Source: Albugo candida
Taxonomy: Eukaryota > Oomycota > Peronosporomycetes > Albuginales > Albuginaceae
Assembly (NCBI GenBank): GCA_905220665.1
Contig: CAJNAR010000191.1
Coordinates: 247,134 to 311,133 of the forward strand
DNA: 64,000 nt
Reading direction: 5' to 3'
Under the pieces are notes generated by a model. That model was not told where the DNA came from. It searched no databases and saw only the letters and a list, made by a program, of their open reading frames with translations. Below, piece by piece: positions 1 to 42,811 of the stretch; within the stretch, counting starts at the first letter, position 1; every line of letters begins with the position of its first letter. Position numbers and translations under genes: made by a program.

Positions 1-661
1 ACTGTATAAGCAATAAGTTTATGTGTAGTGGATCATCCGAGTTCAAGAGACTAGACTACTTGTGTATGAAATGAAAGCTTTTGTGAGAAAGCCTCTTTCG
101 TGAATGAATGTCTTGTATGAGCACTACCCCTTTGGTGAATTTGGATTATCTGAACACCGTTACTGTCTTTCACTTCTCATGTTACCTGGTTCATGAGTGT
201 GCAGAGCACGATCAATGAATATCTTTGAAGTACACAGGAGTTTCACGAACTAGATCAGTATTGAATCAATTAAAGGCTTTCATAAGATATGCTGACATAT
301 TAAAAAATGTCAAAGTATGACCAGAAAAGCTCTTACTACTACGACATTGCTGGTTCTGGACTATTTGAAGACTTTGCTGGCATCTCTCTTTCTACAATGT
401 TTTGAAACCATGTAAGCTGGTTCACGATAGTGAAATGTCGAAGCAATGCATATTGTAGAAGTAGATACGACTTTAACCAAATGGCTTAATATTGTATCAA
501 TTTGAAGCTTTGGTATGTAATTCTTCTATAACAAAGAATGTCGAAAAATGAACACAAAATCTGTTAATACTAGCACTTTGATGGATTAAGATTATCTCAA
601 CACCGTCGAGTATTTCATTTTCTACCATGTTTCAACCACTTTATCTAATTAATAGAATTAA
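1..661. repeat. Reference monomer: three diverged subunits A, B, C
   Basis: The 661-bp monomer is an ancient trimer. Subunit A (about 25-226) opens with gtagtggatcatccgagttc, B (227-457) with a version of gtagtgcacacgagtttcac, and C (458-685, into the next monomer) with a version of gtagtggatacgagttcaac. Further in, A and C share gattatctgaacaccgt / gattatctcaacaccgt. A and B share ctggttcatgagagtg / ctggttcatgatagtg, and all three share a 'tctaccatgtt'-like block. The subunits are much more diverged from each other than monomers are, so trimerisation came before array expansion. Boundaries are read by eye, to within about 10 bp. Confidence 0.8.
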
Positions 662-3600
662 ACTGTATAAGCAATAAGTTTATGTGTAGTGGATCATCCG
701 AGTTCAAGAGACTAGATTACTTGTGTATGAAATGAAAGCTTTGTGAGAAAGCCTCTTTCGTGAATGAATGTCTTGTATGAGCACTACCCCTTTGGTGAAT
801 TAGGAATATCTTTACACCGTTACTGTATTTCACTTCTCATGTTACCTGGTTCATGAGAGTGCAGTGCATAAGCAATTAATATCTTTGTAGTGCACACGAG
901 TTTCACGAACTAGATTAGTATTGTATCAATTTAAGGCTTTCGTAAGATACGCTGACATTAAAAAAATATCAAAATATGACCAAAAAGGCTCTTACTACTA
1001 CGACATTGCTTGTTCTAAACGAACTGAACACTTTTCTGGCATCGCTCTTCCTACAATGTTTTCATACCATGTAAGCTGGTTCATGATAGTGGAATGTGGA
1101 AGCAATGAATATCAATGAATATTGTAGTAGTGGATACGAGTTCAACGAACCGGCTTAATATTGTATCAATTTAAAGCTGTGGTATCCAATTCTTCTATAA
1201 CAAAGAATTCGAAAAATGAACAAAAAATCTGGTAAAACAACCACTTTGATGGATTAGGATTATGTCATCACCATGAGTATTTCATTTTCTACCATGTTTC
1301 AACCACTTTATCTAATTAATAGAATTAAACTGTATAAGCAATAAGTTTATGTGTAGTGGATCATCCGAGTTCAAGAGACTAGATTACTTGTGTATGAAAT
1401 GAAAGCTTTTGTGAGAAAGCCTCTTTCGTGAATGAATGTCTTGTATGAGCACTACCCCTTTTGTGGATTTGGATTATCTGATCACCGTTACTGTCTTTCA
1501 CTTCTCATGTTCCTGGTTCATGAGAGTGCAGTGTACAATCAATGAATATCTTTGTAGTGCACACGAGTTTCACGAACTAGATCAGTATTGAATCAATTAA
1601 AGGCTTTCACAAGATATGCTGACATAATAAAAAATGTCAAAGTATGACCAGAAAAGCTCCTACTACTACGACATTGCTGGTTTTGGACTAACTGAAGACT
1701 TTGCTGGCATCTCTCTTTCTACAATGTTTTGAAACCATGTAAGCTGGTTCATGATAGTGAAATGTCGAAGCAATGCATATTGTAGAAGTAGATACGACTT
1801 TAACCAAATGGCTTAATATTGTATCAATTTGAAGCTTTGGTATGTAATTCTTCTATAACAAAGAATGTCGAAAAATGAACAAAAATCTGTTAATACTAGC
1901 ACTTTGATGGATTAAGATTATCTCAACACCGTCGAGTATTTCATTTTCTACCATGTTTCAACCACTTTATCTAATTAATAGAATTAAACTGTATAAGCAA
2001 TAAGTTTATGTGTAGTGGATCATCCGAGTTCAAGAGACTAGACTACTTGTGTATGAAATGAAAGCTTTTGTGAGAAAGCCTCTTTCGTGAATGAATGTCT
2101 TGTATGAGCACTACCCCTTTGGTGAATTTGGATTATCTGAACACCGTTACTGTCTTTCACTTCTCATGTTACCTGGTTCATGAGTGTGCAGAGCACGATC
2201 AATGAATATCTTTGAAGTACACAGGAGTTTCACGAACTAGATCAGTATTGAATCAATTAAAGGCTTTCATAAGATATGCTGACATAATAAAAAATGTCAA
2301 AGTATGACCAGAAAAGCTCTTACTACTACGACATTGCTGGTTCTGGACTATTTGAAGACTTTGCTGGCATCTCTCTTTCTACAATGTTTTGAAACCATGT
2401 AAGCTGGTTCACGATAGTGAAATGTCGAAGCAATGCATATTGTAGAAGTAGATACGACTTTAACCAAATGGCTTAATATTGTATCAATTTGAAGCTTTGG
2501 TATGTAATTCTTCTATAACAAAGAATGTCGAAAAATGAACACAAAATCTGTTAATACTAGCACTTTGATGGATTAAGATTATCTCAACACCGTCGAGTAT
2601 TTCATTTTCTACCATGTTTCAACCACTTTATCTAATTAATAGAATTAAACTGTACAAGCAATAAGTTTATGTGTAGTGGATCATCCGAGTTCAAGAGACT
2701 AGACTACTTGTGTATGAAATGAAAGCTTTTGTGAGAAAGCCTCTTTCGTGAATGAATGTCTTGTATGAGCACTACCCCTTTGGTGAATTTGGATTATCTG
2801 ATCACCGTTACTGTCTTTCACTTCTCATGTTCCTGGTTCATGAGAGTGCAGTGTACAATCAATGAATATCTTTGTAGTGCACACGAGTTTCACGAACTAG
2901 ATCAGTATTGAATCAATTAAAGGCTTTCATAAGATATGCTGACATATTAAAAAATGTCAAAGTATGACCAGAAAAGCTCTTACTACTACGACATTGCTGG
3001 TTCTGGACTATTTGAAGACTTTGCTGGCATCTCTCTTTCTACAATGTTTTGATACCATGTAAGCTGGTTCACGATAGTGAAATGTCGAAGCAATGCATAT
3101 TGTAGAAGTAGATACGACTTTAACCAAATGGCTTAATATTGTATCAATTTGAAGCTTTGGTATGTAATTCTTCTATAACAAAGAATGTCGAAAAATGAAC
3201 ACAAAATCTGTTAATACTAGCACTTTGATGGATTAAGATTATCTCAACACCGTCGAGTATTTCATTTTCAACCATGTTTCAACCACTTTATCTAATTAAT
3301 AGAATTAAACTGTATAAGCAATAAGTTTATGTGTAGTGGATCATCCGAGTTCAATAGACTAGATTACTTGTGTATGAAATGAAAGCTTTGTGAGAAAGCC
3401 TCTTTCGTGAATGAATGTCTTGTATGAGCACTACCCCTTTGGTGAATTAGGAATATCTTTACACCGTTACTGTATTTCACTTCTCATGTTACCTGGTTCA
3501 TGAGAGTGCAGTGCATAAGCAATTAATATCTTTGTAGTGCACACGAGTTTCACGAACTAGATTAGTATTGTATCAATTTAAGGCTTTCGTAAGATATGCT

Positions 3601-6600
3601 GACATTAAAAAAATATCAAAATATGACCAAAAAGGCTCTTACTACTACGACATTGCTTGTTCTAAACGAACTGAACACTTTTCTGGCATCGCTCTTCCTA
3701 CAATGTTTTCATACCATGTAAGCTGGTTCATGATAGTGGAATGTGGAAGCAATGAATATCAATGAATATTGTAGTAGTGGATACGAGTTCAACGAACCGG
3801 CTTAATATTGTATCAATTTAAAGCTGTGGTATCCAATTCTTCTAGAACAAAGAATTCGAAAAATGAACAAAAAATCTGGTAAAACAACCACTTTGATGGA
3901 TTAGGATTATGTCATCACCATGAGTATTTCATTTTCTACCATGTTTCAACCACTTTATCTAATTAATAGAATTAAACTGTATAAGCAATAAGTTTATGTG
4001 TAGTGGATCATCCGAGTTCAAGAGACTAGATTACTTGTGTATGAAATGAAAGCTTTTGTGAGAAAGCCTCTTTCGTGAATGAATGTCTTGTATGAGCACT
4101 ACCCCTTTTGTGGATTTGGATTATCTGATCACCGTTACTGTCTTTCACTTCTCATGTTCCTGGTTCATGAGAGTGCAGTGTACAATCAATGAATATCTTT
4201 GTAGTGCACACGAGTTTCACGAACTAGATCAGTATTGAATCAATTAAAGGCTTTCACAAGATATGCTGACATAATAAAAAATGTCAAAGTATGACCAGAA
4301 AAGCTCCTACTACTACGACATTGCTGGTTTTGGACTAACTGAAGACTTTGCTGGCATCTCTCTTTCTACAATGTTTTGAAACCATGTAAGCTGGTTCATG
4401 ATAGTGAAATGTCGAAGCAATGCATATTGTAGAAGTAGATACGACTTTAACCAAATGGCTTAATATTGTATCAATTTGAAGCTTTGGTATGTAATTCTTC
4501 TATAACAAAGAATGTCGAAAAATGAACAAAAAATCTGTTAATACTAGCACTTTGATGGATTAAGATTATCTCAACACCGTCGAGTATTTCATTTTCTACC
4601 ATGTTTCAACCACTTTATCTAATTAATAGAATTAAACTGTATAAGCAATAAGTTTATGTGTAGTGGATCATCCGAGTTCAAGAGACTAGACTACTTGTGT
4701 ATGAAATGAAAGCTTTTGTGAGAAAGCCTCTTTCGTGAATGAATGTCTTGTATGAGCACTACCCCTTTGGTGAATTTGGATTATCTGAACACCGTTACTG
4801 TCTTTCACTTCTCATGTTACCTGGTTCATGAGTGTGCAGAGCACGATCAATGAATATCTTTGAAGTACACAGGAGTTTCACGAACTAGATCAGTATTGAA
4901 TCAATTAAAGGCTTTCATAAGATATGCTGACATAATAAAAAATGTCAAAGTATGACCAGAAAAGCTCTTACTACTACGACATTGCTGGTTCTGGACTATT
5001 TGAAGACTTTGCTGGCATCTCTCTTTCTACAATGTTTTGAAACCATGTAAGCTGGTTCACGATAGTGAAATGTCGAAGCAATGCATATTGTAGAAGTAGA
5101 TACGACTTTAACCAAATGGCTTAATATTGTATCAATTTGAAGCTTTGGTATGTAATTCTTCTATAACAAAGAATGTCGAAAAATGAACACAAAATCTGTT
5201 AATACTAGCACTTTGATGGATTAAGATTATCTCAACACCGTCGAGTATTTCATTTTCTACCATGTTTCAACCACTTTATCTAATTAATAGAATTAAACTG
5301 TACAAGCAATAAGTTTATGTGTAGTGGATCATCCGAGTTCAAGAGACTAGACTACTTGTGTATGAAATGAAAGCTTTTGTGAGAAAGCCTCTTTCGTGAA
5401 TGAATGTCTTGTATGAGCACTACCCCTTTGGTGAATTTGGATTATCTGATCACCGTTACTGTCTTTCACTTCTCATGTTCCTGGTTCATGAGAGTGCAGT
5501 GTACAATCAATGAATATCTTTGTAGTGCACACGAGTTTCACGAACTAGATCAGTATTGAATCAATTAAAGGCTTTCATAAGATATGCTGACATATTAAAA
5601 AATGTCAAAGTATGACCAGAAAAGCTCTTACTACTACGACATTGCTGGTTCTGGACTATTTGAAGACTTTGCTGGCATCTCTCTTTCTACAATGTTTTGA
5701 TACCATGTAAGCTGGTTCACGATAGTGAAATGTCGAAGCAATGCATATTGTAGAAGTAGATACGACTTTAACCAAATGGCTTAATATTGTATCAATTTGA
5801 AGCTTTGGTATGTAATTCTTCTATAACAAAGAATGTCGAAAAATGAACACAAAATCTGTTAATACTAGCACTTTGATGGATTAAGATTATCTCAACACCG
5901 TCGAGTATTTCATTTTCAACCATGTTTCAACCACTTTATCTAATTAATAGAATTAAACTGTATAAGCAATAAGTTTATGTGTAGTGGATCATCCGAGTTC
6001 AATAGACTAGATTACTTGTGTATGAAATGAAAGCTTTTGTGAGAAAGCCTCTTTCGTGAATGAATGTCTTGTATGAGCACTACCCCTTTGGTGAATTAGG
6101 AATATCTTTACACCGTTACTGTATTTCACTTCTCATGTTACCTGGTTCATGAGAGTGCAGTGCATAAGCAATTAATATCTTTGTAGTGCACACGAGTTTC
6201 ACGAACTAGATTAGTATTGTATCAATTTAAGGCTTTCGTAAGATATGCTGACATTAAAAAAATATCAAAATATGACCAAAAAGGCTCTTACTACTACGAC
6301 ATTGCTTGTTCTAAACGAACTGAACACTTTTCTGGCATCGCTCTTCCTACAATGTTTTCATACCATGTAAGCTGGTTCATGATAGTGGAATGTGGAAGCA
6401 ATGAATATCAATGAATATTGTAGTAGTGGATACGAGTTCAACGAACCGGCTTAATATTGTATCAATTTAAAGCTGTGGTATCCAATTCTTCTATAACAAA
6501 GAATTCGAAAAATGAACAAAAAATCTGGTAAAACAACCACTTTGATGGATTAGGATTATGTCATCACCATGAGTATTTCATTTTCTACCATGTTTCAACC

Positions 6601-7045
6601 ACTTTATCTAATTAATAGAATTAAACTGTATAAGCAATAAGTTTATGTGTAGTGGATCATCCGAGTTCAAGAGACTAGATTACTTGTGTATGAAATGAAA
6701 GCTTTTGTGAGAAAGCCTCTTTCGTGAATGAATGTCTTGTATGAGCACTTCCCCTTTTGTGGATTTGGATTATCTGATCACCGTTACTGTCTTTCACTTC
6801 TCATGTTCCTGGTTCATGAGAGTGCAGTGTACAATCAATGAATATCTTTGTAGTGCACACGAGTTTCACGAACTAGATCAGTATTGAATCAATTAAAGGC
6901 TTTCACAAGATATGCTGACATAATAAAAAATGTCAAAGTATGACCAGAAAAGCTCCTACTACTACGACATTGCTGGTTTTGGACTAACTGAAGACTTTGC
7001 TGGCATCTCTCTTTCTACAATGTTTTGAAACCATGTAAGCTGGTT
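662..7045. repeat. Higher-order repeat of ~2.65 kb (4 monomers)
   Basis: Monomers 2-5 (662-3308) recur as 3309-5956 and again from 5957. The period is 2,647-2,649 bp. Diagnostic variants recur in register: the 667-bp monomer with 'gcataagcaattaat' at positions 2, 6 and 10; 'cccttttgtggattt' at 3, 7 and 11; 'tgtgcagagcacgatc' at 4 and 8; 'actgtacaagc' at 5 and 9. Only a handful of substitutions separate the copies, far fewer than separate neighbouring monomers. The third copy breaks near 7,045, inside monomer 11, where subunit C switches to another variant. The 667-bp type returns at 7966, 15312 and 27225 out of phase, so the HOR is local. Confidence 0.88.
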
Positions 7046-10000
7046 AACGATAGTGAAATGTTGAAGCAATGAATATCAATGAATATTGTAGTAGTGGATA
7101 CGAGTTCAACGATCCGGCTTAATATTGTATGAATTTAAAGCTGTGGTATTCAATTCTTCAATAACAAAGAACTTCGAAAAATGAACAAAAAATCTGTTAA
7201 TACTAGCACTTTGATGGATTAAGATTATCTCAACACCGTCGAGTATTTCATTTTCTACCATGTTTCAACCACTTTATCTAATTAATAGAATTAAACTGTA
7301 TAAGCAATAAGTTTATGTGTAGTGGATCATCCGAGTTCAATAGACTAGATTACTTGTGTATGAAATGAAAGCTTTTGTGAGAAAGCCTCTTTCGTGAATG
7401 AATGTCTTGTATGAGCACTACCCCTTTGGTGAATTTGGATTATCTTAACACCGTTACTGTCTTTCACTTCTCATGTTACCTGGTTCATGAGAGTGCAGTG
7501 TACAATCAATGAATATCTTTGTAGTGCACACGAGTTTCACGAACTAGATCAGTATTGAATCAATCAAAGGCTTTCATAAGATACGCTGACATATTAAAAA
7601 ATATCAAAGTATGACAAAAAAGGCTCCTACTACTAGGACATTGCTGGTTCTAAACTAACTGAACACTTTTCTGGCATCGCTCTTTCTATATTCTTTTCAT
7701 ACCATGTAAGCTGGTTCATGATAGTGAAATGTGGAAGCAATAAATATCAACATATTTTGTAGTAGTGGATACGAGTTCAACGATCCGGCTTAATATTGTA
7801 TGAATTTAAAGCTGTGGTATTCAATTCTGCAATAACAAAGAATTTCGAAAAATGAACAAAACATCTGTTAATACTAGCACTTTGATGGATTAAGATTATC
7901 TCAACACCGTCGAGTATTTCATTTTCTACCATGTTTCAACCACTTTATCTAATTAATAGAATTAAACTGTATAAGCAATAAGTTTATGTGTAGTGGATCA
8001 TCCGAGTTCAATAGACTAGATTACTTGTGTATGAAATGAAAGCTTTGTGAGAAAGCCTCTTTCGTGAATGAATGTCTTGTATGAGCACTACCCCTTTGGT
8101 GAATTAGGAATATCTTTACACCGTTACTGTATTTCACTTCTCATGTTACCTGGTTCATGAGAGTGCAGTGCATAAGCAATTAATATCTTTGTAGTGCATA
8201 CGAGTTTCACGAACTAGATTAGTATTGTATCAATTTAAGGCTTTCGTAAGATACGCTGACATTAAAAAAATATCAAAATATGACCAAAAAGGCTCTTACT
8301 ACTACGACATTGCTTGTTCTAAACGAACTGAACACTTTTCTGGCATCGCTCTTCCTACAATGTTTTCATACCATGTAAGCTGGTTCATGATAGTGGAATG
8401 TGGAAGCAATGAATATCAATGAATATTGTAGTAGTGGATACGAGTTCAACGAACCGGCTTAATATTGTATCAATTTAAAGCTGTGGTATCCAATTCTTCT
8501 ATAACAAAGAATTCGAAAAATGAACAAAAAATCTGGTAAAACAACCACTTTGATGGATTAGGATTATGTCATCACCATGAGTATTTCATTTTCTACCATG
8601 TTTCAACCACTTTATCTAATTAATAGAATTAAACTGTTTAAGCAATAAGTTTATGTGTAGTGGATCATCCGAGTTCAAGAGACTAGATTACTTGTGTATG
8701 AAATGAAAGCTTTTGTGAGAAAGCCTCTTTCGTGAATGAATGTCTTGTATGAGCACTTCCCCTTTTGTGGATTTGGATTATCTGAACACCGTTACTGTCT
8801 TTCACTTCTCATGTTCCTGGTTCATGAGAGTGCAGTGTACAATCAATGAATATCTTTGTAGTGCACACGAGTTTCACGAACTAGATCAGTATTGAATCAA
8901 TTAAAGGCTTTCATAAGATATGCTGACATATTAAAAAATGTCAAAGTATGACCAGAAAAGCTCTTACTACTACGACATTGCTGGTTCTGGACTATTTGAA
9001 GAATGTGCTGGCATCTCTCTTTCTACAATGTTTTGATACCATGTAAGCTGGTTCATGATAGTGAAATGTCAAAGCAATGAATATCAATGAATATTGTAGT
9101 AGTGGATACGAGTTCAACGATCCGGCTTAATATTGTATGAATTTGAAGCTGTGGTATTCAATTCTTCTATAACAAAGAATTTCGCAAAATGAACAAAAAT
9201 TCTGTTAATACTAGCACTTTGATGGATTAAGATTATCTCAACACCGTCGAGTATTTCATTTTCTACCATGTTTCAACCACTTTATCTAATTAATAGAATT
9301 AAACTGTATAAGCAATAAGTTTATGTGTAGTGGATCATCCGAGTTCAATAGACTAGATTACTTGTGTATGAAATGAAAGCTTTTGTGAGAAAGCCTCTTT
9401 CGTGAATGAATGTCTTGTATGAGCACTACCCCTTTGGTGAATTTGGATTATCTGAACACCGTTACTGTCTTTCACTTCTCATGTTACCTGGTTCATGAGT
9501 GTGCAGAGCACGATCAATGAATATCTTTGAAGTACACAGGAGTTTCACGAACTAGATCAGTATTGAATCAATTAAAGGCTTTCATAAGATATGCTGACAT
9601 AATAAAAAATGTTAAAGTATGACCAGAAAAGCTCTTACTACTACGACATTGCTGGTTCTGGACTATTTGAAGACTTTGCTGGCATCTCTCTTTCTACAAT
9701 GTTTTGATACCATGTAATCTGGTTCATGATAGTGAAATGTGGAAGCAATAAATATCAATGAATTTTGTAGTAGTTGATACGAGTTCAACGATCCGGCTTA
9801 ATATTGTATGAATTTGAAGCTGTGGTATTCAATTCTTCTATAACAAAGAATTTCGCAAAATGAACAAAAATTCTGTTAATACTAGCACTTTGATGGATTA
9901 AGATTATCTCAACACCGTCGAGTATTTCATTTTCTACCATGTTTCAACCACTTTATCTAATTAATAGAATTAAACTGTATAAGCAATAAGTTTATGTGTA

Positions 10001-13000
10001 GTGGATCATCCGAGTTCAAGAGACTAGATTACTTGTGTATGAAATGAAAGCTTTTGTGAGAAAGCCTCTTTCGTGAATGAATGTCTTGTATGAGCACTTC
10101 CCCTTTTGTGGATTTGGATTATCTGATCACCGTTACTGTCTTTCACTTCTCATGTTCCTGGTTCATGAGAGTGCAGTGTACAATCAATGAATATCTTTGT
10201 AGTGCACACGAGTTTCACGAACTAGATCAGTATTGAATCAATCAAAGGCTTTCAAAAGATATGCTGACATAATAAAAAATGTTAAAGTATGACCAGAAAA
10301 GCTCTTACTACTACGACATTGCTGGTTCTGGACTATTTGAAGACTTTGCTGGCATCTCTCTTTCTACAATGTTTTGATACCATGTAATCTGGTTCATGAT
10401 AGTGAAATGTGGAAGCAATAAATATCAATGAATTTTGTAGTAGTTGATACGAGTTCAACGATCCGGCTTAATATTGTATGAATTTGAAGCTGTGGTATTC
10501 AATTCTTCTATAACAAAGAATTTCGCAAAATGAACAAAAATTCTGTTAATACTAGCACTTTGATGGATTAAGATTATCTCAACACCGTCGAGTATTTCAT
10601 TTTCTACCATGTTTCAACCACTTTATCTAATTAATAGAATTAAACTGTATAAGCAATAAGTTTATGTGTAGTGGATCATCCGAGTTCAAGAGACTAGATT
10701 ACTTGTGTATGAAATGAAAGCTTTTGTGAGAAAGCCTCTTTCGTGAATGAATGTCTTGTATGAGCACTACCCCTTTGGTGAATTTGGATTATCTGAACAC
10801 CGTTACTGTCTTTCACTTCTCATGTTACCTGGTTCATGAGTGTGCAGAGCACGATCAATGAATATCTTTGAAGTACACAGGAGGTTCACGAACTAGATCA
10901 GTATTGAATCAATTAAAGGCTTTCATAAGATATGATAAAAAATGTCAAAGTATGACCAGAAAAGCTCTTACTACTATGACATTGCTGGTTCTGGACTATC
11001 TGAAGAATGTGCTGGCATCTCTCTTTCTACAATGTTTTGATACCATGTAAGCTGGTTCATGATAGTGAAATGTCAAAGCAATGAATATCAATGAATATTG
11101 TAGTAGTGGATACGAGTTCAACGATCCGGCTTAATATTGTATGAATTTAAAGCTGTGGTATTCAATTCTTCTATAACAAAGAATTTCGAAAAATGAACAA
11201 AAAACTGTTAATACTAGCACTTTGATGGATTAAGATTATCTCAACACCGTCGAGTATTTCATTTTCTACCATCTTTCAACCACTTTACCTAATTATTAGA
11301 ATTAAACTGTATCAGCAATAAGTTTATGTGTAGTGGAACATCCGAGTTCAAGCGACAAGATTACTTGTGTATGAAATGAGTTTTGTGAGAAAGCCTCTTT
11401 CGTGAATGAATGTCTTGTATGAGCAATACCCCTTTGGTGAATTTGGATTATCTTAACACCGTTACTGTGTTTCACTTCTCATGTTACCTGGTTCATGAGA
11501 GTGCAGAGCACAATCAATGAATATCTTTGTAGTACACACGAGTTTCACGAACTACATCAGTATTGAATCAATTAAAGGCTTTCATAAGATACGCTGACAT
11601 ATTAAAAATTTCAAAGTATGACCAGAAAAGCTCTTACTACTACGACATTGCTGGTTCTGGACTAACTGAACACTTTTCTGGCATCGCTCTTTCTACAATG
11701 TTTTGAAACCATGTAAGCTGGTTCACGATAGTGAAATGTCGAAGCAATGCATATTGTCGAAGTAGATACGACTTTAACCAAATGGCTTGATATTGTATCA
11801 ATTTGAAGCTTTGGTATGTAATTCTTCTATAACAAAGAATGTCGAAAAATGAACAAAAAATCTGTTAATACTAGCACTTTGATGGATTAAGATTATCTCA
11901 ACACCGTCGAGTATTTCATTTTCTACCATGTTTCAACCACTTTATCTAATTAATAGAATTAAACTGTATAAGCAATAAGTTTATGTGTAGTGGATCATCC
12001 GAGTTCAATAGACTAGATTACTTGTGTATGAAATGAAAGCTTTTGTGAGAAAGCCTCTTTCGTGAATGAATGTCTTGTATGAGCACTACCCCTTTGGTGA
12101 ATTTGGATTATCTTAACACCGTTACTGTCTTTCACTTCTCATGTTACCTGGTTCATGAGTGTGCAGAGCACGATCAATGAATATCTTTGAAGTACACAGG
12201 AGTTTCACGAACTAGATCAGTATTGAATCAATTAAAGGCTTTCATAAGATATGCTGACATAATAAAAAATGTCAAAGTATGACCAGAAAAGCTCTTACTA
12301 CTACGACATTGCTGGTTCTGGACTATTTGAAGACTTTGCTGGCATCTCTCTTCCTACAATGTTTTCATACCATGTAAGCTGGTTCATGATAGTGAAATGT
12401 TGAAGCAATGAATATCAATGAATATTGTAGTAGTGGATACGAGTTCAACGATCCGGCTTAATATTGTATGAATTCAAAGCTGTGGTATTCAAATCTTCAA
12501 TAACAAAGAACTTCGAAAAATGAACAAAAAATCTGTTAATACTAGCACTTTGATGGATTAAGATTATCTCAACACCGTCGAGTATTTCATTTTCTACCAT
12601 GTTTCAACCACTTTATCTAATTAATAGAATTAAACTGTATAAGCAATAAGTTTATGTGTAGTGGATCATCCGAGTTCAAGAGACTAGATTACTTGTGTAT
12701 GAAATGAAAGCTTTTGTGAGAAAGCCTCTTTCGTGGATGAATGTCTTGTATGAGCACTTCCCCTTTTGTGGAATTGGAATATCTGAACACCGTTACTGTC
12801 TTTCACTTCTCATGTTCCTGGTTCATGAGAGTGAAGTGTACAATCAATGAATATCTTTGTAGTGCACACGAGTTTCACGAACTAGATCAGTATTGAATCA
12901 ATTAAAGGCTTTCATAAGATATGCTGACATATTAAAAAATGTCAAAGTATGACCAGAAAAGCTCTTACTACTACGACATTGCTGGTTCTGGACTATTTGA

Positions 13001-17297: not shown

Positions 17298-17497
17298 ACT
17301 GTATAAGCAATAAGTTTATGTGTAGTGGATCATCCGAGTTCAAGAGACTAGATTACTTGTGTATGAAATGAAAGCTTTGTGAGAAAGCCTCTTTCGTGAA
17401 TGAATGTCTTGTATGAGCACTACCCCTTTGTCTCAACACCGTCGAGTATTTCATTTTCTACCATGTTTCAACCACTTTATCTAATTAATAGAATTAA
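17298..17497. repeat. Truncated satellite monomer (~200 bp)
   Basis: The monomer jumps at 17430/17431 from the middle of subunit A ('ctacccctttg') straight to the corresponding part of subunit C ('tctcaacaccgtcgag'), losing about 460 bp. This leaves roughly one subunit. The breakpoint joins near-equivalent positions of two different subunits, as expected from misaligned recombination between them. Confidence 0.9.
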
Positions 17498-20400
17498 ACT
17501 GTATAAGCAATAAGTTTATGTGTAGTGGATCTTCCGAGTTCAAGAGACTAGATTACTTGTGTATGAAATGAAAGCTTTGTGAGAAAGCCTCTTTCGTGAA
17601 TGAATGTCTTGTATGAGCACTTCCCCTTTTGTGGATTTGGATTATCTGATCACCGTTACTGTCTTTCACTTCTCATGTTCTGGTTCATGAGAGTGCAGTG
17701 TACAATCAATTAATATCTTTGTAGTGCACACGAGTTTCACGAACTAGATTAGTATTGTATCAATTTAAGGCTTTCGTAAGATATGCTGACATTAAAAAAA
17801 TATCAAAATATGACCAAAAAGGCTCTTACTACTACGACATTGCTTGTTCTAAACGAACTGAACACTTTTCTGGCATCGCTCTTCCTACAATGTTTTGATA
17901 CCATGTAAGCTGGTTCATGATAGTGAAATGTCGAAGCAATGCATATTGTAGAAGTGGATACGAGTTCAACGAACCGGCTTAATATTGTATCAATTTGAAG
18001 CTGTGGTATTCAATTCTTCTATAACAAAGAATTTCGAAAAATGAACAAAAAATCTGGTAATACTACACTTTGATGGATTAGGATTATGTCATCACCATGA
18101 GTATTTCATTTTCTACCATGTTTCAACCACTTTATCTAATTAATAGAATTAAACTGTATAAGCAATAAGTTTATGTGTAGTGGATCTTCCGAGTTCAAGA
18201 GACTAGACTACTTGTGTATGAAATGAAAGCTTTTGTGAGAAAGCCTCTTTCGTGAATGAATGTCTTGTATGAGCACTTCCCCTTTTGTGGATTTGGATTA
18301 TCTGATCACCGTTACTGTCTTTCACTTCTCATGTTCCTGGTTCATGAGAGTGCAGTGTACAATCAATTGATATCTTTGAAGTACACAGGAGTTTCACGAA
18401 CTAGATCAGTATTGAATCAATTAAAGGCTTTCATAAGATATGCTGACATTTGAAAAAATGTCAAAGTATGACCAGAAAAGCTCTTACTACTACGACATTG
18501 CTGGTTCTGGACTATTTGAAGACTCAGCTGGCATCTCTCTTTCTACAATGTTTTGAAACCATGTAAGCTGGTTCATGATAGTGAAATGTCGAAGCAATGC
18601 ATATTGTAGAAGTAGATACGACTTTAACCAAATGGCTTAATATTGTATCAATTTGAAGCTTTGGTATGTAATTCTTCTATAACAAAGAATTTCGCAAAAT
18701 GAACAAAAATTCTTTTAATACTAGCACTTTGATGGATTAAGATTATCTCAACACCGTCGAGTATTTCATTTTCAACCATGTTTCAACCACTTTATCTAAT
18801 TAATAGAATTAAACTGTATAAGCAATAAGTTTATGTGTAGTGGATCATCCGAGTTCAAGAGACTAGACTACTTGTGTATGAAATGAAAGCTTTTGTGAGA
18901 AAGCCTCTTTCGTGAATGAATGTCTTGTATGAGCACTTCCCCTTTTGTGGATTTGGATTATCTGAACACCGTTACTGTCTTTCACTTCTCATGTTCCTGG
19001 TTCATGAGAGTGCAGTGTACAATCAATTGATATCTTTGAAGTACACAGGAGTTTCACGAACTAGATCAGTATTGAATCAATTAAAGGCTTTCATAAGATA
19101 TGCTGACATTTTAAAAAATGTCAAAGTATGACCAGAAAAGCTCTTACTACTACGACATTGCTGGTTCTGGACTATTTGAAGACTCAGCTGGCATCTCTCT
19201 TTCTACAATGTTTTGAAACCATGTAAGCTGGTTCATGATAGTGAAATGTCGAAGCAATGCATATTGTAGAAGTAGATACGACTTTAACCAAATGGCTTGA
19301 TATTGTATCAATTTGAAGCTTTGGTATGTAATTCTTCTATAACAAAGAATGTCGAAAAATGAACACAAAATCTGTTAATACTAGCACTTTGATGGATTAA
19401 GATTATCTCAACACCGTCTAGTATTTCATTTTCTACCATGTTTCAACCACTTTATCTAATTAATAGAATTAAACTGTATAAGCAATAAGTTTATGTGTAG
19501 TGGATCATCCGAGTTCAAGACTAGATTACTTGTGTATGAAATGAAAGCTTTTGTGAGAAAGCCTCTTTCGTGAATGAATGTCTTGTATGAGCACTACCCC
19601 TTTGGTGAATTAGGAATATCTTTACACCGTTACTGTATTTCACTTCTCATGTTACCTGGTTCATGAGAGTGCAGTGTACAATCAATGAATATCTTTGTAG
19701 TGCACACGAGTTTCACGAACTAGATTAGTATTGTATCAATTTAAGGCTTTCGTAAGATACGCTGACATTAAAAAAATTTCAAAGTATGACCAAAAAGGCT
19801 CTTACTACTACGACATTGCTGGTTCTAAACTAACTGAACACTTTTCTGGCATCGCTCTTTCTACAATGTTTTGATACCATGTAAGCTGGTTCATGATAGT
19901 GAAATGTCGAAGCAATGAATATCAATGAATATTGTAGTAGTGGATACGAGTTCAACGATCCGGCTTAATATTGTATGAATTTGAAGCTGTGGTATTCAAT
20001 TCTTCTATAACAAAGAATTTCGCAAAATGAACAAAAATTCTTTTAATACTAGCACTTTGATGGATTAAGATTATCTCAACACCGTCGAGTATTTCATTTT
20101 CTACCATGTTTCAACCACTTTATCTAATTAATAGAATTAAACTGTATAAGCAATAAGTTTATGTGTAGTGGAACATCCGAGTTCAAGCGACAAGATTACT
20201 TGTGTATGAAATGAGTTTTGTGAGAAAGCCTCTTTCGTGAATGAATGTCTTGTATGAGCACTACCCCTTTGGTGAATTTGGATTATCTGAACACCGTGAC
20301 TGTGTTTCACTTCTCATGTTACCTGGTTCATGAGAGTGCAGTGTACAATCAATTGATATCTTTGAAGTACACACGAGTTTCACGAACTAGATCAGTATTG

Positions 20401-20798: not shown

Positions 20799-21286
20799 AC
20801 TGTATAAGCAATAAGTTTATGTGTAGTGGATCATCCGAGTTCAAGAGACTAGATTACTTGTGTATGAAATGAAAGCTTTTGTGAGAAAGCCTCTTTCGTG
20901 AAGATACGCTGACATTAAAAAAATTTCAAAGTATGACCAAAAAGGCTCTTACTACTACGACATTGCTTGTTCTAAACGAACTGAACACTTTTCTGGCATC
21001 GCTCTTCTACAATGTTTTGATACCATGTAAGCTGGTTCATGATAGTGAAATGTCGAAGCAATGAATATCAATGAATATTGTAGTAGTGGATACGAGTTCA
21101 ACGATCCGGCTTAATATTGTATGAATTTGAAGCTGTGGTATTCAATTCTTCTATAACAAAGAATTTCGCAAAATGAACAAAAATTCTGTTAATACTAGCA
21201 CTTTGATGGATTAAGATTATCTCAACACCGTCGAGTATTTCATTTTCTACCATGTTTCAACCACTTTATCTAATTAATAGAAATAA
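20799..21286. repeat. Shortened satellite monomer (488 bp)
   Basis: Near 20901 the sequence passes from subunit A ('ctctttcgtga') into subunit B ('agatacgctgac'). Subunit B normally reads ggctttcgtaagatacgctg, so the junction lies in a short shared 'tttcgt.a' stretch. About 170-200 bp, roughly one subunit, is missing and two remain. Confidence 0.88.
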
Positions 21287-22092
21287 ACTGTATAAGCAAT
21301 AAGTTTATGTGTAGTGGATCATCCGAGTTCAAGAGACTAGATTACTTGTGTATGAAATGAAAGCTTTTGTGAGAAAGCCTCTTTCGTGAATGAATGTCTT
21401 GTATGAGCACTACCCCTTTGGTGAATTTGGATTATCTGAACACCGTGACTGTGTTTCACTTCTCATGTTACCTGGTTCATGAGAGTGCAGTGTACAATCA
21501 ATTGATATCTTTGAAGTACACACGAGTTTCACGAACTAGATCAGTATTGAATCAATTAAAGGCTTTCATAAGATATGCTGACATTTTAAAAAATGTCAAA
21601 GTATGACCAGAAAAGCTCTTACTACTACGACATTGCTGGTTCTGGACTATTTGAAGACTCAGCTGGCATCTCTCTTTCTACAATGTTTTGAAACCATGTA
21701 AGCTGGTTCATGATAGTGAAATGTCGAAGCAATGCATATTGTAGAAGTAGATACGACTTTAACCAAATGGCTTAATATTGTATCAATTTGAAGCTTTGGT
21801 ATGTAATTCTTCTATAACAAAGAATGTCGAAAAATGAACACAAAATCTGTTAATACTAGCACTTTGATGGATTAAGATTATCTCAACACCGTCTAGTATT
21901 TCATTTTCTACCATGTTTCAACCACTTTATCTAATTAATAGAATTAAACTGTATAAGCAATAAGTTTATGTGTAGTGGATCATCCGAGTTCAATAGACTA
22001 GATTACTTGTGTATGAAATGAAAGCTTTTGTGAGAAAGCCTCTTTCGTGGATGAATGTCTTGTATGAGCACTTCCCCTTTTGTGGATTTGGA

Positions 22093-22148
22093 TTATCTGA
22101 TCACCGTTACTGTCTTTCACTTATCTGATCACCGTTACTGTCTTTCAC
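22093..22148. repeat. 28-bp tandem duplication inside a monomer
   Basis: A 28-bp block starting ttatctgatcaccgttactg occurs twice in direct succession (22093-22120 and 22121-22148). All other monomers carry it once. It is a private duplication, useful as a unique marker in the array. Confidence 0.93.
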
Positions 22149-27500: not shown

Positions 27501-30500
27501 TTTCGTAAGATACGCTGACATTAAAAAAATTTCAAAGTATGACCAAAAAGGCTCTTACTACTACGACATTGCTTGTTCTAAACGAACTGAACACTTTTCT
27601 GGCATCGCTCTTCCTACAATGTTTTCATACCATGTAAGCTGGTTCATGATAGTGGAATGTGGAAGCAATGAATATCAATGAATATTGTAGTAGTGGATAC
27701 GAGTTCAACGAACCGGCTTAATATTGTATCAATTTAAAGCTGTGGTATCCAATTCTTCTATAACAAAGAATTCGAAAAATGAACAAAAAATCTGGTAAAA
27801 CAACCACTTTGATGGATTAGGATTATGTCATCACCATGAGTATTTCATTTTCTACCATGTTTCAACCACTTTATCTAATTAATAGAATTAAACTGTATAA
27901 GCAATAAGTTTATGTGTAGTGGATCATCCGAGTTCAAGAGACTAGATTACTTGTGTATGAAATGAAAGCTTTTGTGAGAAAGCCTCTTTCGTGAATGAAT
28001 GTCTTGTATGAGCACTACCCCTTTGGTGAATTTGGATTATCTGAACACCGTGACTGTGTTTCACTTCTCATGTTACCTGGTTCATGAGAGTGCAGTGTAC
28101 AATCAATTGATATCTTTGAAGTACACAGGAGTTTCACGAACTAGATCAGTATTGAATCAATTAAAGGCTTTCATAAGATATGCTGACATATTAAAAAATG
28201 TCAAAGTATGACCAGAAAAGCTCTTACTACTACGACATTGCTGGTTCTGGACTATTTGAAGACTCAGCTGGCATCTCTCTTTCTACAATGTTTTGAAACC
28301 ATGTAAGCTGGTTCATGATAGTGAAATGTCGAAGCAATGCATATTGTAGAAGTAGATACGACTTTAACCAAATGGCTTAATATTGTATCAATTTGAAGCT
28401 TTGGTATGTAATTCTTCTATAACAAAGAATTTCGAAAAATGAACAAAAAATCTGTTAATACTAGCACTTTGATGGATTAAGATTATCTCAACACCGTCGA
28501 GTATTTCATTTTCAACCATGTTTCAACCACTTTATCTAATTAATAGAATTAAACTGTATAAGCAATAAGTTTATGTGTAGTGGATCATCCGAGTTCAAGA
28601 GACTAGACTACTTGTGTATGAAATGAAAGCTTTTGTGAGAAAGCCTCTTTCGTGAATGAATGTCTTGTATGAGCACTACCCCTTTGGTGAATTTGGATTA
28701 TCTGAACACCGTTACTGTCTTTCACTTCTCATGCTCCTGGTTCATGAGAGTGCAGTGTACAATCAATTGATATCTTTGAAGTACACAGGAGTTTCACGAA
28801 CTAGATCAGTATTGAATCAATTAAAGGCTTTCATAAGATATGCTGACATTTTAAAAAATGTCAAAGTATGACCAGAAAAGCTCTTACTACTACGACATTG
28901 CTGGTTCTGGACTATTTGAAGACTCAGCTGGCATCTCTCTTTCTACAATGTTTTGAAACCATGTAAGCTGGTTCATGATAGTGAAATGTCGAAGCAATGC
29001 ATATTGTAGAAGTAGATACGACTTTAACCAAATGGCTTAATATTGTATCAATTTGAAGCTTTGGTATGTAATTCTTCTATAACAAAGAATGTCGAAAAAT
29101 GAACACAAAATCTGTTAATACTAGCACTTTGATGGATTAAGATTATCTCAACACCGTCTAGTATTTCATTTTCTACCATGTTTCAACCACTTTATCTAAT
29201 TAATAGAATTAAACTGTATAAGCAATAAGTTTATGTGTAGTGGATCATCCGAGTTCAAGAGACTAGACTACTTGTGTATGAAATGAAAGCTTTTGTGAGA
29301 AAGCCTCTTTCGTGAATGAATGTCTTGTATGAGCACTACCCCTTTGGTGAATTAGGAATATCTTTACACCGTTACTGTATTTCACTTCTCATGTTACCTG
29401 GTTCATGAGAGTGCAGTGCATAAGCAATTAATATCTTTGTAGTGCACACGAGTTTCACGAACTAGATTAGTATTGTATCAATTTAAAGGCTTTCGTAAGA
29501 TACGCTGACATTAAAAAAATTTCAAAGTATGACCAAAAAGGCTCTTACTACTACGACATTGCTTGTTCTAAACGAACTGAACACTTTTCTGGCATCGCTC
29601 TTCTACAATGTTTTGATACCATGTAAGCTGGTTCATGATAGTGAAATGTCGAAGCAATGAATATCAATGAATATTGTAGTAGTGGATACGAGTTCAACGA
29701 TCCGGCTTAATATTGTATGAATTTGAAGCTGTGGTATTCAATTCTTCTATAACAAAGAATTTCGCAAAATGAACAAAAATTCTGTTAATACTAGCACTTT
29801 GATGGATTAAGATTATCTCAACACCGTCGAGTATTTCATTTTCTACCATGTTTCAACCACTTTATCTAATTAATAGAATTAAACTGTATAAGCAATAAGT
29901 TTATGTGTAGTGGATCATCCGAGTTCAAGAGACTAGATTACTTGTGTATGAAATGAAAGCTTTTGTGAGAAAGCCTCTTTCGTGAATGAATGTCTTGTAT
30001 GAGCACTACCCCTTTGGTGAATTTGGATTATCTGAACACCGTGACTGTGTTTCACTTCTCATGTTACCTGGTTCATGAGAGTGCAGTGTACAATCAATTG
30101 ATATCTTTGAAGTACACACGAGTTTCACGAACTAGATCAGTATTGAATCAATTAAAGGCTTTCATAAGATATGCTGACATTTTAAAAAATGTCAAAGTAT
30201 GACCAGAAAAGCTCTTACTACTACGACATTGCTGGTTCTGGACTATTTGAAGACTTTGCTGGCATCTCTCTTTCTACAATGTTTTGAAACCATGTAAGCT
30301 GGTTCATGATAGTGAAATGTCGAAGCAATGCATATTGTAGAAGTAGATACGACTTTAACCAAATGGCTTAATATTGTATCAATTTGAAGCTTTGGTATGT
30401 AATTCTTCTATAACAAAGAATGTCGAAAAATGAACACAAAATCTGTTAATACTAGCACTTTGATGGATTAAGATTATCTCAACACCGTCTAGTATTTCAT

Positions 30501-31203
30501 TTTCTACCATGTTTCAACCACTTTATCTAATTAATAGAATTAAACTGTATAAGCAATAAGTTTATGTGTAGTGGATCATCCGAGTTCAATAGACTAGATT
30601 ACTTGTGTATGAAATGAAAGCTTTTGTGAGAAAGCCTCTTTCGTGGATGAATGTCTTGTATGAGCACTTCCCCTTTTGTGGATTTGGATTATCTGATCAC
30701 CGTTACTGTCTTTCACTTCTCATGTTCCTGGTTCATGAGAGTGCAGTGTACAATCAATGAATATCTTTGTAGTGCACACGAGTTTCACGAACTAGATCAG
30801 TATTGAATCAATCAAAGGCTTTCAGAAGATATGCTGACATAATAAAAAATGTTAAAGTATGACCAGAAAAGCTCTTACTACTACGACATTGCTGGTTCTG
30901 GACTATTTGAAGACTCAGCTGGCATCTCTCTTTCTACAATGTTTTGAAACCATGTAAGCTGGTTCACGATAGTGAAATGTCGAAGCAATGCATATTGTAG
31001 AAGTAGATACGACTTTAACCAAATGGCTTAATATTGTATCAATTTGAAGCTTTGGTATGTAATTCTTCTATAACAAAGAATTTCGAAAAATGAACAAAAA
31101 ATCTGTTAATACTAGCACTTTGATGGATTAAGATTATCTCAACACCGACGAGTATTTCATTTTCTACCATGTTTCAACCACTTTATCTAATTAATAGAAT
31201 TAA

Positions 31204-32523
31204 ACTGTATAAGCAATAAGTTTATGTGTAGTGGATCTTCCGAGTTCAAGAGACTGGATTACTTGTGTATGAAATGAAAGCTTTTGTGAGAAAGCCTCTT
31301 TCGTGAATGAATGTCTTGTATGAGCACTTCCCCTTTTGTGGATTTGGATTATCTGATCACCGTTACTGTCTTTCACTTCTCATGTTGCTGGTTCATGAGA
31401 GTGCAGTGTACAATCAATGAATATCTTTGTAGTGCACACGAGTTTCACGAACTAGATCAGTATTGAATCAATCAAAGGCTTTCAGAAGATATGCTGACAT
31501 AATAAAAAATGTTAAAGTATGACCAGAAAAGCTCTTACTACTACGACATTGCTGGTTCTGGACTATTTGAAGACTTTGCTGGCATCTCTCTTTCTACAAT
31601 GTTTTGATACCATGTAAGCTGGTTCACGATAGTGAAATGTCGAAGCAATGCATATTGTAGAAGTAGATACGACTTTAACCAAATGGCTTAATATTGTATC
31701 AATTTGAAGCTTTGGTATGTAATTCTTCTATAACAAAGAATGTCGAAAAATGAACACAAAATCTGTTAATACTAGCACTTTGATGGATTAAGATTATCTC
31801 AACACCGTCGAGTATTTCATTTTCTACCATGTTTCAACCACTTTATCTAATTAATAGAATTAAACTGTATAAGCAATAAGTTTATGTGTAGTGGATCTTC
31901 CGAGTTCAAGAGACTGGATTACTTGTGTATGAAATGAAAGCTTTTGTGAGAAAGCCTCTTTCGTGAATGAATGTCTTGTATGAGCACTTCCCCTTTTGTG
32001 GATTTGGATTATCTGATCACCGTTACTGTCTTTCACTTCTCATGTTGCTGGTTCATGAGAGTGCAGTGTACAATCAATGAATATCTTTGTAGTGCACACG
32101 AGTTTCACGAACTAGATCAGTATTGAATCAATCAAAGGCTTTCAGAAGATATGCTGACATAATAAAAAATGTTAAAGTATGACCAGAAAAGCTCTTACTA
32201 CTACGACATTGCTGGTTCTGGACTATTTGAAGACTTTGCTGGCATCTCTCTTTCTACAATGTTTTGAAACCATGTAAGCTGGTTCACGATAGTGAAATGT
32301 CGAAGCAATGCATATTGTAGAAGTAGATACGACTTTAACCAAATGGCTTAATATTGTATCAATTTGAAGCTTTGGTATGTAATTCTTCTATAACAAAGAA
32401 TGTCGAAAAATGAACAAAAAATCTGTTAATACTAGCACTTTGATGGATTAAGATTATCTCAACACCGTCGAGTATTTCATTTTCAACCATGTTTCAACCA
32501 CTTTATCTAATTAATAGAATTAA
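31204..32523. repeat. Recent tandem duplication of one monomer
   Basis: Monomers 31204-31863 and 31864-32523 are both 660 bp, share the private variants 'gatcttccgagttc' and 'gagactggattac', and differ at only about four positions by eye. This is much closer than typical neighbours and indicates a single-monomer duplication independent of the 2.65-kb HOR at the other end. Confidence 0.85.
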
Positions 32524-35180
32524 ACTGTATAAGCAATAAGTTTATGTGTAGTGGATCATCCGAGTTCAAGACTAGATTACTTGTGTATGAAATGAAAGCT
32601 TTTGTGAGAAAGCCTCTTTCGTGAATGAATGTCTTGTATGAGCACTACCCCTTTGGTGAATTTGGATTATCTGACACCGTTACTGTATTTCACTTCTCAT
32701 GTTACCTGGTTCATGAGAGTGCAGTGTACAATCAATTAATATCTTTGTAGTGCACACGAGTTTCACGAACTAGATCAGTATTGAATCAATTTAAGGCTTT
32801 CGTAAGATACGCTGACATTAAAAAAATTTCAAAGTATGACCAAAAAGGCTCTTACTACTACGACATTGCTTGTTCTAAACTAACTGAACACTTTTCTGGC
32901 ATCGCTCTTTCTACAATGTTTTCATACCATGTAAGCTGGTTCATGATAGTGGAATGTGGAAGCAATGAATATCAATGAATATTGTAGTAGTGGATACGAG
33001 TTCAACGAACCGGCTTAATATTGTATCAATTTAAGCTGTGGTATTCAATTCTTCATAACAAAGAATTTCGAAAAATGAACACAAAATCTGTTAATACTAG
33101 CACTTTGATGGATTAAGATTATCTCAACACCGTCGAGTATTTCATTTTCAACCATGTTTCAACCACTTTATCTAATTAATAGAATTAAACTGTATAAGCA
33201 ATAAGTTTATGTGTAGTGGATCATCCGAGTTCAATAGACTAGATTACTTGTGTATGAAATGAAAGCTTTTGTGAGAAAGCCTCTTTCGTGAATGAATGTC
33301 TTGTATGAGCACTACCCCTTTGGTGAATTTGGATTATCTGAACACCGTTACTGTGTTTCACTTCTCATGTTACCTGGTTCATGAGAGTGCAGTGTACAAT
33401 CAATTAATATCTTTGTAGTGCACACGAGTTTCATGAACTAGATCAGTATTGAATCAATTTAAGGCTTTCATAAGATACGCTGACATAATAAAAAATGTCA
33501 AAGTATGACCAGAAAAGCTCTTACTACTACGACATTGCTGGTTCTGGACTATTTGAAGACTTTGCTGGCATCTCTCTTTCTACAATGTTTTGAAACCATG
33601 TAAGCTGGTTCACGATAGTGAAATGTCGAAGCAATGCATATTGTAGAAGTAGATACGACTTTAACCAAATGGCTTAATATTGTATCAATTTGAAGCTTTG
33701 GTATGTAATTCTTCTATAACAAAGAATGTCGAAAAATGAACACAAAATCTGTTAATACTAGCACTTTGATGGATTAAGATTATCTCAACACCGTCGAGTA
33801 TTTCATTTTCAACCATGTTTCAACCACTTTATCTAATTAATAGAATTAAACTGTATAAGCAATAAGTTTATGTGTAGTGGATCATCCGAGTTCAAGAGAC
33901 TAGACTACTTGTGTATGAAATGAAAGCTTTTGTGAGAAAGCCTCTTTCGTGAATGAATGTCTTGTATGAGCACTACCCCTTTGGTGAATTTGGATTATCT
34001 GAACACCGTTACTGTCTTTCACTTCTCATGTTACCTGGTTCATGAGTGTGCAGAGCACGATCAATGAATATCTTTGAAGTACACAGGAGTTTCACGAACT
34101 AGATCAGTATTGAATCAATTAAAGGCTTTCATAAGATATGCTGACATAATAAAAAATGTCAAAGTATGACCAGAAAAGCTCTTACTACTACGACATTGCT
34201 GGTTCTGGACTATTTGAAGACTTTGCTGGCATCTCTCTTTCTACAATGTTTTGAAACCATGTAAGCTGGTTCACGATAGTGAAATGTCGAAGCAATGCAT
34301 ATTGTAGAAGTAGATACGACTTTAACCAAATGGCTTAATATTGTATCAATTTGAAGCTTTGGTATGTAATTCTTCTATAACAAAGAATGTCGAAAAATGA
34401 ACACAAAATCTGTTAATACTAGCACTTTGATGGATTAAGATTATCTCAACACCGTCGAGTATTTCATTTTCAACCATGTTTCAACCACTTTATCTAATTA
34501 ATAGAATTAAACTGTATAAGCAATAAGTTTATGTGTAGTGGATCATCCGAGTTCAGGAGACTAGATTACTTGTGTATGAAATGAAAGCTTTTGTGAGAAA
34601 GCCTCTTTCGTGGATGAATGTCTTGTATGAGCACTACCCCTTTGGTGAATTAGGAATATCTTTACACCGTTACTGTATTTCACTTCTCATGTTACCTGGT
34701 TCATGAGAGTGCAGAGCACAATCAATTAATATCTTTGAAGTACACAGGAGTTTCACGAACTAGATCAGTATTGAATCAATTAAAGGCTTTCGTAAGATAC
34801 GCTGACATATTAAAAATATCACAGTATGACCAAAAAGGCTCTTACTACTACGACATTGCTGGTTCTGAACTAACTGAACACTTTGCTGGCATCACTCTTT
34901 CTAAAATGTTTTCATACCATGTAAGCTGGTTCATGATAGTGAAATGTTGAAGCAATGAATATCAAGGAATATTGTAGTAGTGGATACGAGTTCAACGATC
35001 CGGCTTAATATTGTATGAATTTGAAGCTGTGGTATTCAATTTTTCAATAACAAAGAATTTCGAAAAATGAACAAAACATCTGTTAATACTCGCACTTTGA
35101 TGGATTAAGATTATCTCAACACCGTCGACTATTTCATTTTCTACCATGTTTCAACCACTTTATCTAATTAATAGAATTAA

Positions 35181-35680
35181 ACTGTATAAGCAATAGGTTT
35201 GTGTGTAGTGGATCTTCCGAGTTCAATAGAATAGATTACTTGTGTATGAAATGAAAGCTTTTGTAATAAAGCCTCTTTCGTGAATGAATTTCTTGTATGA
35301 GCACTACCTGTTTGATGGATTTGGAATAGTGAACACCGTGACTGTGTCTCACTTCCTGTGTCTCACTTCCATGTTACCTGATTCAAGATAGTGCAGTGTA
35401 CAAGTAATGAATATGGTTGTAGTGCAGACGAGTTTCACGAACTAGATCAGTATTGTATCAATTTAAGGATTTCGTTAGATATGCTGACATAATAAAAAAT
35501 GTCAAAGTATGACCAAAAAAGCTGTTACTACTACGACATTGTTGGTTCTGGACTAATTGAACACTTTGCTGGTATCGCTCTTTCTACAATGTTCTGAAAC
35601 CATGTAACCGGGTTCATGATGGTGAAGTGTTGAAGCAATGAATACTGTGAAAGTGGATACGAGTTCAACGAACTAGCTTT
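35181..35680. repeat. Diverged edge monomer ending the array
   Basis: The last monomer has many private changes: 'caataggtttgtgtg', 'gtaataaagcc', and a local duplication of 'cctgtgtctcactt' near 35345-35368. It fades out inside subunit C at about 35,675, after 'tggatacgagttcaacgaac'. No target duplication or junction motif was seen. Divergence rising at the edge is the usual sign that this monomer no longer takes part in homogenisation. Confidence 0.85.
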
Positions 35681-42759: not shown

Positions 42760-42811
42760 GTGGTCTTTTTTATTTCTTCGGAATCAGCTACTACTGTTGT
42801 CCGCAAAAGAA

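What the first reader, a model, noticed from the sequence alone, without database searches (positions are those of the whole stretch)
1..35680. Three-tier satellite: ~220-bp subunits, 660-bp monomers, 2.65-kb higher-order repeats
The monomer is not a simple unit: three internally homologous blocks begin with related 20-mers (gtagtggatcatccgagttc, gtagtgcacacgagtttcac, gtagtggatacgagttcaac) and share later landmarks. Four monomers then form a local higher-order unit. Such nested amplification is the classic sign of a centromere- or heterochromatin-type array and gives a dated history (trimerisation, then array growth, then local homogenisation).
Basis: partly seen in the sequence, partly recalled or inferred. 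Interest (0 to 1): 0.8.

Follow-up and report, generated by a model that had tools for sequence, protein, structure and literature searches.

The report
Three-part satellite DNA in white rust
A 66-kilobase stretch of tandemly repeated DNA in what appears to be the white-rust oomycete Albugo is built from three diverged copies of one 225-base unit locked into a repeating trio, a contig-specific layout like that of human centromere satellites; whether it works as a centromere is not shown.

Summary
The array is real and longer than reported: 65.8 kb (contig C189:217030-282812, window -30103 to 35679), 299 subunits on one strand, uninterrupted. The ~220-bp subunits are truly homologous and form a trimer of median 667 bp; 288 of 299 subunits lie in clean ABC trimers. 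The third tier fails as stated: the 2.65-kb four-trimer unit exists only near window 686-6648; elsewhere monomers form a patchwork with other block duplications. The genome is Albugo candida or a close relative (CENH3-type frame 98% identical). A, B and C belong to a 225-bp satellite family that forms monomer and dimer arrays on other contigs; a motif of the A unit occurs only on this contig (99 of 99 matches). Best reading: a chromosome-specific higher-order satellite kept in register by unequal exchange, probably centromeric or pericentromeric. For: arrays lie opposite telomeres on two contigs, and a Copia element inserts in them. Against a universal centromere role: a contig with telomeres at both ends showed no match in 40 of 40 samples. 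CENH3 could not be mapped.

The parts
1..35679 (+). Window part of the trimeric satellite array (whole array C189:217030-282812, i.e. window -30103 to 35679; 299 subunits, one strand, no insertion)
   Evidence: blastn coverage of 1-35679; nhmmer segmentation, largest gap 30 bp; GC 0.344 against 0.433 (left 40 kb) and 0.415 (right flank)
686..886 (+). Example subunit A (201 bp; class consensus 202 bp, shortened by two main gaps against the 225-bp family)
   Evidence: segmentation; consensus alignment
887..1126 (+). Example subunit B (240 bp)
1127..1352 (+). Example subunit C (226 bp; class consensus 228 bp)
686..6648 (+). The only place where the claimed 2.65-kb four-monomer period was found: monomers 45-48, 49-52 and 53 (monomers 45-49 match 49-53 at 99.8%)
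   Evidence: 1,509-bp exact repeat at offset 2,648
7990..12657 (+). Monomers 56-62, a near-perfect copy (99.96%) of monomers 32-38, which lie about 16 kb upstream, outside the window
   Evidence: exact repeats of 3,036 and 1,499 bp at offset 15,941
17322..17521 (+). Extra A subunit: break in the ABC register (a 200-bp tandem duplication here is also found by TRF)
20823..21310 (+). Subunit that begins with the A motif but clusters with B, then a C: register break, by inference from unequal exchange or deletion
21972..22121 (+). Truncated A subunit beside a 28-bp tandem duplication: register break
35205..35679 (+). Right edge: A- and B-type subunits at 0.89 and 0.91 to their class consensus, then a C-type start cut off at 35679

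Best explanation
The finding is a chromosome-specific higher-order satellite array of a 225-bp satellite family in Albugo candida or a close relative. Shown: three subunits diverged about as far from each other as from the family's other arrays, and a fixed A-B-C trimer amplified about a hundred times. Inferred mechanism: once the subunits differ by over a third, exchange between misaligned copies is efficient only in the 667-bp register, so unequal exchange and block duplication homogenise trimers while A, B and C stay distinct. Inferred role: the array is constitutive heterochromatin at or beside a centromere, with CENH3 nucleosomes, if present, loaded epigenetically and not by a sequence box.
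For: Register: 96 clean trimers; 11 of 299 subunits, three of them at the edges, fall outside. Mosaic exchange: four block duplications of three or more monomers, against a mean of 0.04 in 100 permutations. Edge relics: the first two subunits at the left are intermediate, 0.69-0.82 to A, B and C and 0.69-0.78 to four 225-bp monomer consensuses. Family: 225-bp monomer arrays on C83, C119, C174, C178 and C187 and 448-bp dimer arrays on C120, C127 and C178. Contig specificity: 99 of 99 matches to an A-unit motif, up to 2 mismatches, lie on C189 (B and C motifs not tested). Position: C178 has satellite at 0-19 kb and a telomere at its other end, 420 kb; C147 has a telomere at its start and satellite fragments at 702-707 of 763 kb. 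A Copia element abuts satellite, within about 2 bases, at C83:16048/16049 and C178:14577. A CENH3-type histone gene is present on C1.
Against: C143 (1,218,497 bp, telomere repeats at both ends) gave no family match in 40 of 40 samples of 300 bp at 30-kb spacing, nor any row in DNA searches (which score only the best candidates), so the satellite is not shown on every chromosome. Phytophthora sojae centromeres are rich in a Copia-like transposon and have a GC content like the genome (passages of PMC7082073), unlike this AT-rich array; other oomycete centromeres were likewise traced by Copia-like elements (passages of PMC11139960). The Copia family here is not confined to satellites: 7 of 13 matches of 87% or more lie on contigs where no satellite was found. 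No CENP-B box in the window, where 0.09 was expected by chance, and no excess of short dyads in seven consensuses. There are no chromatin data.
Confidence: 0.52

Rival explanations
1. A non-centromeric satellite block: selfish tandem DNA expanded by unequal exchange in an interstitial heterochromatic, transposon-rich region, with no role in segregation. The same exchange mechanism explains the structure.
For: No family match in 40 samples of C143, which has telomeres at both ends; described oomycete centromeres rest on Copia-like transposons; flanks of C189 hold a LINE, a Gypsy-type RNase H piece and a below-cut-off MULE match.
Against: Arrays on several contigs with trimer and dimer forms of limited spread, far from telomeres on C178 and C147, is the pattern expected of centromeric satellites.
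Confidence: 0.37
2. A subtelomeric satellite, as reported for solo PpSat1 copies beside telomere repeats in Phytophthora parasitica.
For: The array ends 28 kb from a contig end; PpSat1 solo copies are mostly telomere-linked (passages of PMC7290008).
Against: On C178 and C147 satellite and telomere lie at opposite ends; no telomere repeat at the C189 left end, and the window's right end holds a LINE.
Confidence: 0.08
3. An assembly artefact: a shorter array inflated or rearranged by the assembler.
For: Near-identical blocks (3,036 bp exact at 15.9-kb offset) could mislead an assembler; several array contigs are short.
Against: Monomers differ by about 8% on average, the longest exact repeat is shorter than usual long reads (read lengths recalled, not seen), and non-satellite DNA flanks both ends. 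A false copy number inside the array is still possible.
Confidence: 0.03

Closest known systems
Primate alpha satellite (recalled, not compared by sequence)
   Same: Diverged short subunits locked in chromosome-specific higher-order units; degenerate monomers at array edges; unit-register homogenisation.
   Different: No sequence relation tested or claimed; 225-bp not 171-bp subunits; no CENP-B box found in the window; CENP-A occupancy unknown.
PpSat1 and PpSat2 of Phytophthora parasitica (PMC7290008; abstract and passages read)
   Same: Oomycete satellite arrays with transposon-rich flanks; PpSat1 (337 bp; [quoted passage not shown]
CoLT-rich centromeres of Phytophthora sojae (PMC7082073; passages read)
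   Same: Copia elements are present in and beside some satellite arrays here; a CENH3-type histone is encoded.
   Different: P. sojae centromeres are transposon clusters with GC like the genome; here the core is a tandem satellite. Whether the Copia here is a CoLT relative was not tested.

Membership tests
Satellite DNA | Long head-to-tail array of related, non-coding units | tested here: met
   299 subunits, 65.8 kb, one strand; no Rfam match at gathering score in the window
Higher-order-repeat satellite | Diverged subunits in fixed order, with copies of the whole unit much more alike than subunits within it | tested here: met
   92-94% within class, 61-63% between classes; 96 ABC trimers, 11 of 299 subunits outside them
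Higher-order-repeat satellite | Chromosome-specific unit | tested here: met
   99 of 99 A-unit motif matches on C189; dimers on C120, C127 and C178. Contigs stand in for chromosomes; only the A unit was tested
   Lag-4 identity 0.996 in six pairs of one block, 0.922 in the other 86 pairs
Centromeric DNA | Occupied by CENH3 | not testable with these tools
   CENH3-type gene found but no chromatin data
Centromeric DNA | One array on every chromosome (expected if this satellite is the general centromere DNA) | tested here: inconclusive
   Negative so far: no family match in 40 of 40 samples of C143, which has telomere repeats at both ends; an array under 30 kb, a strongly diverged one, or a chimeric contig is not excluded
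Subtelomeric satellite | Adjacent to telomere repeats | tested here: not met
   C178 and C147 carry them at opposite ends; the nearest telomere of C189 itself is not assembled
CoLT-type oomycete centromere | Cluster of Copia-like elements of the CoLT clade | tested here: inconclusive
   A Copia family lies on 5 satellite-bearing contigs, but 7 of 13 matches of 87% or more are on contigs where no satellite was found; clade not tested

The most novel reading that the evidence does not exclude
Albugo has built centromeres from chromosome-specific higher-order satellites, with Copia elements inserting in them, in a lineage where the described centromeres are transposon clusters: convergence with primates and many plants, caught in one small genome with monomer, dimer and trimer stages side by side.
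Probability: 0.35. Interest if true: 0.65.

Novelty: new member of a known kind. Interest (0 to 1): 0.42.

Why it matters
Oomycete satellites are little described, and none of the papers listed by my searches reports a higher-order satellite in an oomycete or any satellite in Albugo, as far as titles and abstract beginnings show (papers listed of papers found: 10 of 25, 10 of 44, 2 of 2, 2 of 2, 10 of 42, 6 of 6; open-access library only). A spanned 66-kb array with relic edges, next to monomer and dimer arrays of the same family, lets the build-up of higher-order satellites be studied in a 39-Mb genome. If CENH3 sits on it, centromeres would have switched between transposon-based and satellite-based within oomycetes.

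Tried and rejected
Array-wide four-monomer repeat: rejected. Rfam families, tRNAs and CENP-B box (consensus recalled) in the window, and excess dyads in seven unit consensuses: none found. A single in-place trimerisation as the origin of A, B and C: neither shown nor rejected. Exclusive targeting of satellites by the Copia element: rejected. Of the 11 core-histone matches, five were fetched and read by eye as H2A, H2B, an H2A.Z-like protein and two NF-YC-like proteins, not CENH3; the two pieces on C1 were fetched as one stretch and are the CENH3-type gene. The family search by pattern caught only dimer-type units (60 matches, on C120, C127, C174 and C178) and says nothing of the monomer type. 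skips very common words and did not list the array itself, so it could not show contig specificity; one search was run for that. The tandem-repeat step inside one search failed and was redone for the other contigs. WW-dinucleotide correlation was not interpreted. The telomere listing was cut at its first places and that misses some ends (C178 among them), so telomeres were not counted.

Full report
What was checked. The window is G000:C189:247134-311133, the right part of a 311,133-bp contig in a 38.9-Mb assembly of 196 contigs. The array fills window 1-35679 and goes on upstream: L009 and L010 are covered throughout, L011 all but one base, and L012 only near its end. A profile of the subunits cut the whole stretch into 299 hits from C189:217030 on, all on one strand, with one gap of 30 bp and none larger.

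Subunits. In pairwise tests of six subunits, 11 of 12 cross-class pairs beat all of 200 shuffles; A1 against B1 did not. Clustering gave three classes of 101 (A), 100 (B) and 98 (C) subunits, 92-94% alike within and 61-63% between. They run ABCABC with few breaks: 96 clean trimers, median 667 bp, nearly all of 653-662 or 665-671 bp. The 11 subunits outside clean trimers lie at the left edge (1), at window -27305 to -26838 (4), 17322 (1), 20823-21083 (2), 21972 (1) and the right edge (2).

Third tier. Mean identity by lag runs from 0.914 to 0.932 over lags 1-24. Lag 4 averages 0.927. This exceeds the permutation mean of 0.919 (300 permutations, p 0.003), but mostly because of one block: without six pairs in monomers 44-53 it is 0.922. 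Lag 24 is highest (0.932), with monomers 32-38 copied at 56-62. Four block duplications of three or more monomers were found, against a mean of 0.04 in 100 permutations. So the array carries recent local duplications of various sizes, not a regular 2.65-kb unit.

Organism. A LINE reading frame in the left flank matches oomycete elements, among them one of Albugo laibachii at 62% over 55% of the query; the top-scoring hit (60%) has no name. The histone frame at C1:521.9-522.3 kb (131 residues) is 98% identical over its whole length to an Albugo candida protein (P0121), with CENP-A/H3 chimeras as the best solved structures. The published A. candida draft has GC about 43% and 34.5 Mb assembled of an estimated 45.3 Mb, and its authors suggest unassembled repeats, centromeric or telomeric ones among them (passages of PMC3206522).

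The wider family. The array's profile finds arrays on other contigs: 225-bp monomers on C83 (16 kb), C119, C174 (6.8 kb) and C178 (14.6-19.1 kb), and 448-bp dimers on C120 (19 kb), C127 (9 kb) and C178 (1-9.3 kb). C114 and C131 carry monomers. C187 has them in every sample from its first base to 35.3 kb of 140 kb, with more matches between, and not at 40.0 kb. C174:11.7-15.4 kb holds a further form with about 489-bp spacing, mostly 68-69% like the dimer. Small fragments lie on C7, C42, C147 and C178. Consensus units of A, B, C, D1 and the five monomer arrays align at 63-98% with z of 9 or more; D2, the other half of the dimer, is the most distant (59-69%, z 2-8), so its kinship is weakly supported. 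In a tree of 60 sampled subunits (7 each of A, B and C; 5 of each of four monomer arrays and 3 of C187; 4 each of D1 and D2 from two contigs) A, B and C are each one clade, B and C are sisters (95/91), and the monomer arrays form one clade. A clade of A+B+C is not rejected (AU p 0.24). The family sums to roughly 0.18 Mb if C187 is taken as continuous to 35.3 kb and C119 as 10 kb.

Contig specificity and edges. A 22-base A-unit motif with up to 2 mismatches has 99 matches in the genome, all on C189 and on one strand. B and C motifs were not searched. At the left edge the first two subunits are intermediate between the classes; subunit 0 is partial (118 bp) and subunit 1 has full length (231 bp) where class A has 202. 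These are likely relics of the monomer stage, as known at alpha-satellite array edges (recalled).

Where arrays lie. C178 has arrays in its first 19 kb and a telomere at 420 kb. C147 has a telomere at its start and satellite fragments at 702-707 of 763 kb. C7 has a telomere tract near its start, an 82-bp fragment at 395.9 of 427.8 kb and no telomere repeat at its other end. No telomere repeat was found at the far ends looked at on C174 and C187, nor at the left end of C189. This speaks against a subtelomeric array. Against a satellite on every chromosome: C143 has telomere repeats at both ends, yet 40 of 40 samples at 30-kb spacing show no family match (best E 0.55). An array shorter than 30 kb, a strongly diverged one, or a chimeric contig could still explain that.

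Transposons. A Copia element about 4.4 kb long with LTRs near 207 bp abuts satellite, within about 2 bases, at C83:16048/16049 and at C178:14577; the two copies are 95.7% alike over 3,953 bp. Of 13 matches of 87% or more to its RT region (covering 611-901 of 901 bases), 6 are on satellite contigs (C131 twice, C114, C83, C178, C119) and 7 are not (C144, C103, C146, C153, C159, C162, C2), with a partial one on C12. C83, C114, C119 and C131 may be copies of one locus, so independent satellite cases are about two. C189's own flanks hold a LINE (RVT_1, 124 bits), a Gypsy-type RNase H piece just over its cut-off and a MULE match below its cut-off.

Mechanism and verdict. Shown: structure, register, contig specificity of the A unit, recent block duplication, divergent edges. 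Inferred: in-register unequal exchange keeps trimers alike and subunits apart. Inferred and untested: heterochromatin at or near a centromere. The kind is known; this instance, in an oomycete, was not seen in the listings of searches, which showed part of what they found and cover open-access papers only.

Noticed in passing
L059 (G000:C1:521651-522300): CENH3-type histone gene with a diverged tail, 98% identical to an Albugo candida protein; a second exon seems to follow.
   Followed up: partly
G000:C143:1-1218497: Contig with telomere repeats at both ends, apparently a whole small chromosome; its centromere is unplaced.
   Followed up: partly
G000:C174:11737-15419: A further tandem array with about 489-bp spacing, mostly 68-69% like the 448-bp dimer, separated from the 225-bp array by a Copia fragment.
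   Followed up: no
L025 (G000:C119) at about 9321: Strand switch inside a 225-bp array: units on - before and on + after.
   Followed up: no
window 61870-63997 and L014 1559-3682: Two LINE copies, 93% identical over 2.1 kb, on opposite sides of the array about 120 kb apart.
   Followed up: partly
window 42758-44431: 557-codon open frame with no Pfam match in its first 516 residues; it holds the window's only ambiguous bases, five N between 44310 and 44377.
   Followed up: partly
window 46561-48027 and 58932-60454: Inverted copies, 73-75% alike, of an element whose relatives also lie in L012 and L015, left of the array.
   Followed up: no
window 57919-58124: A 109-bp tandem repeat of 1.9 copies, 80% matches.
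   Followed up: no
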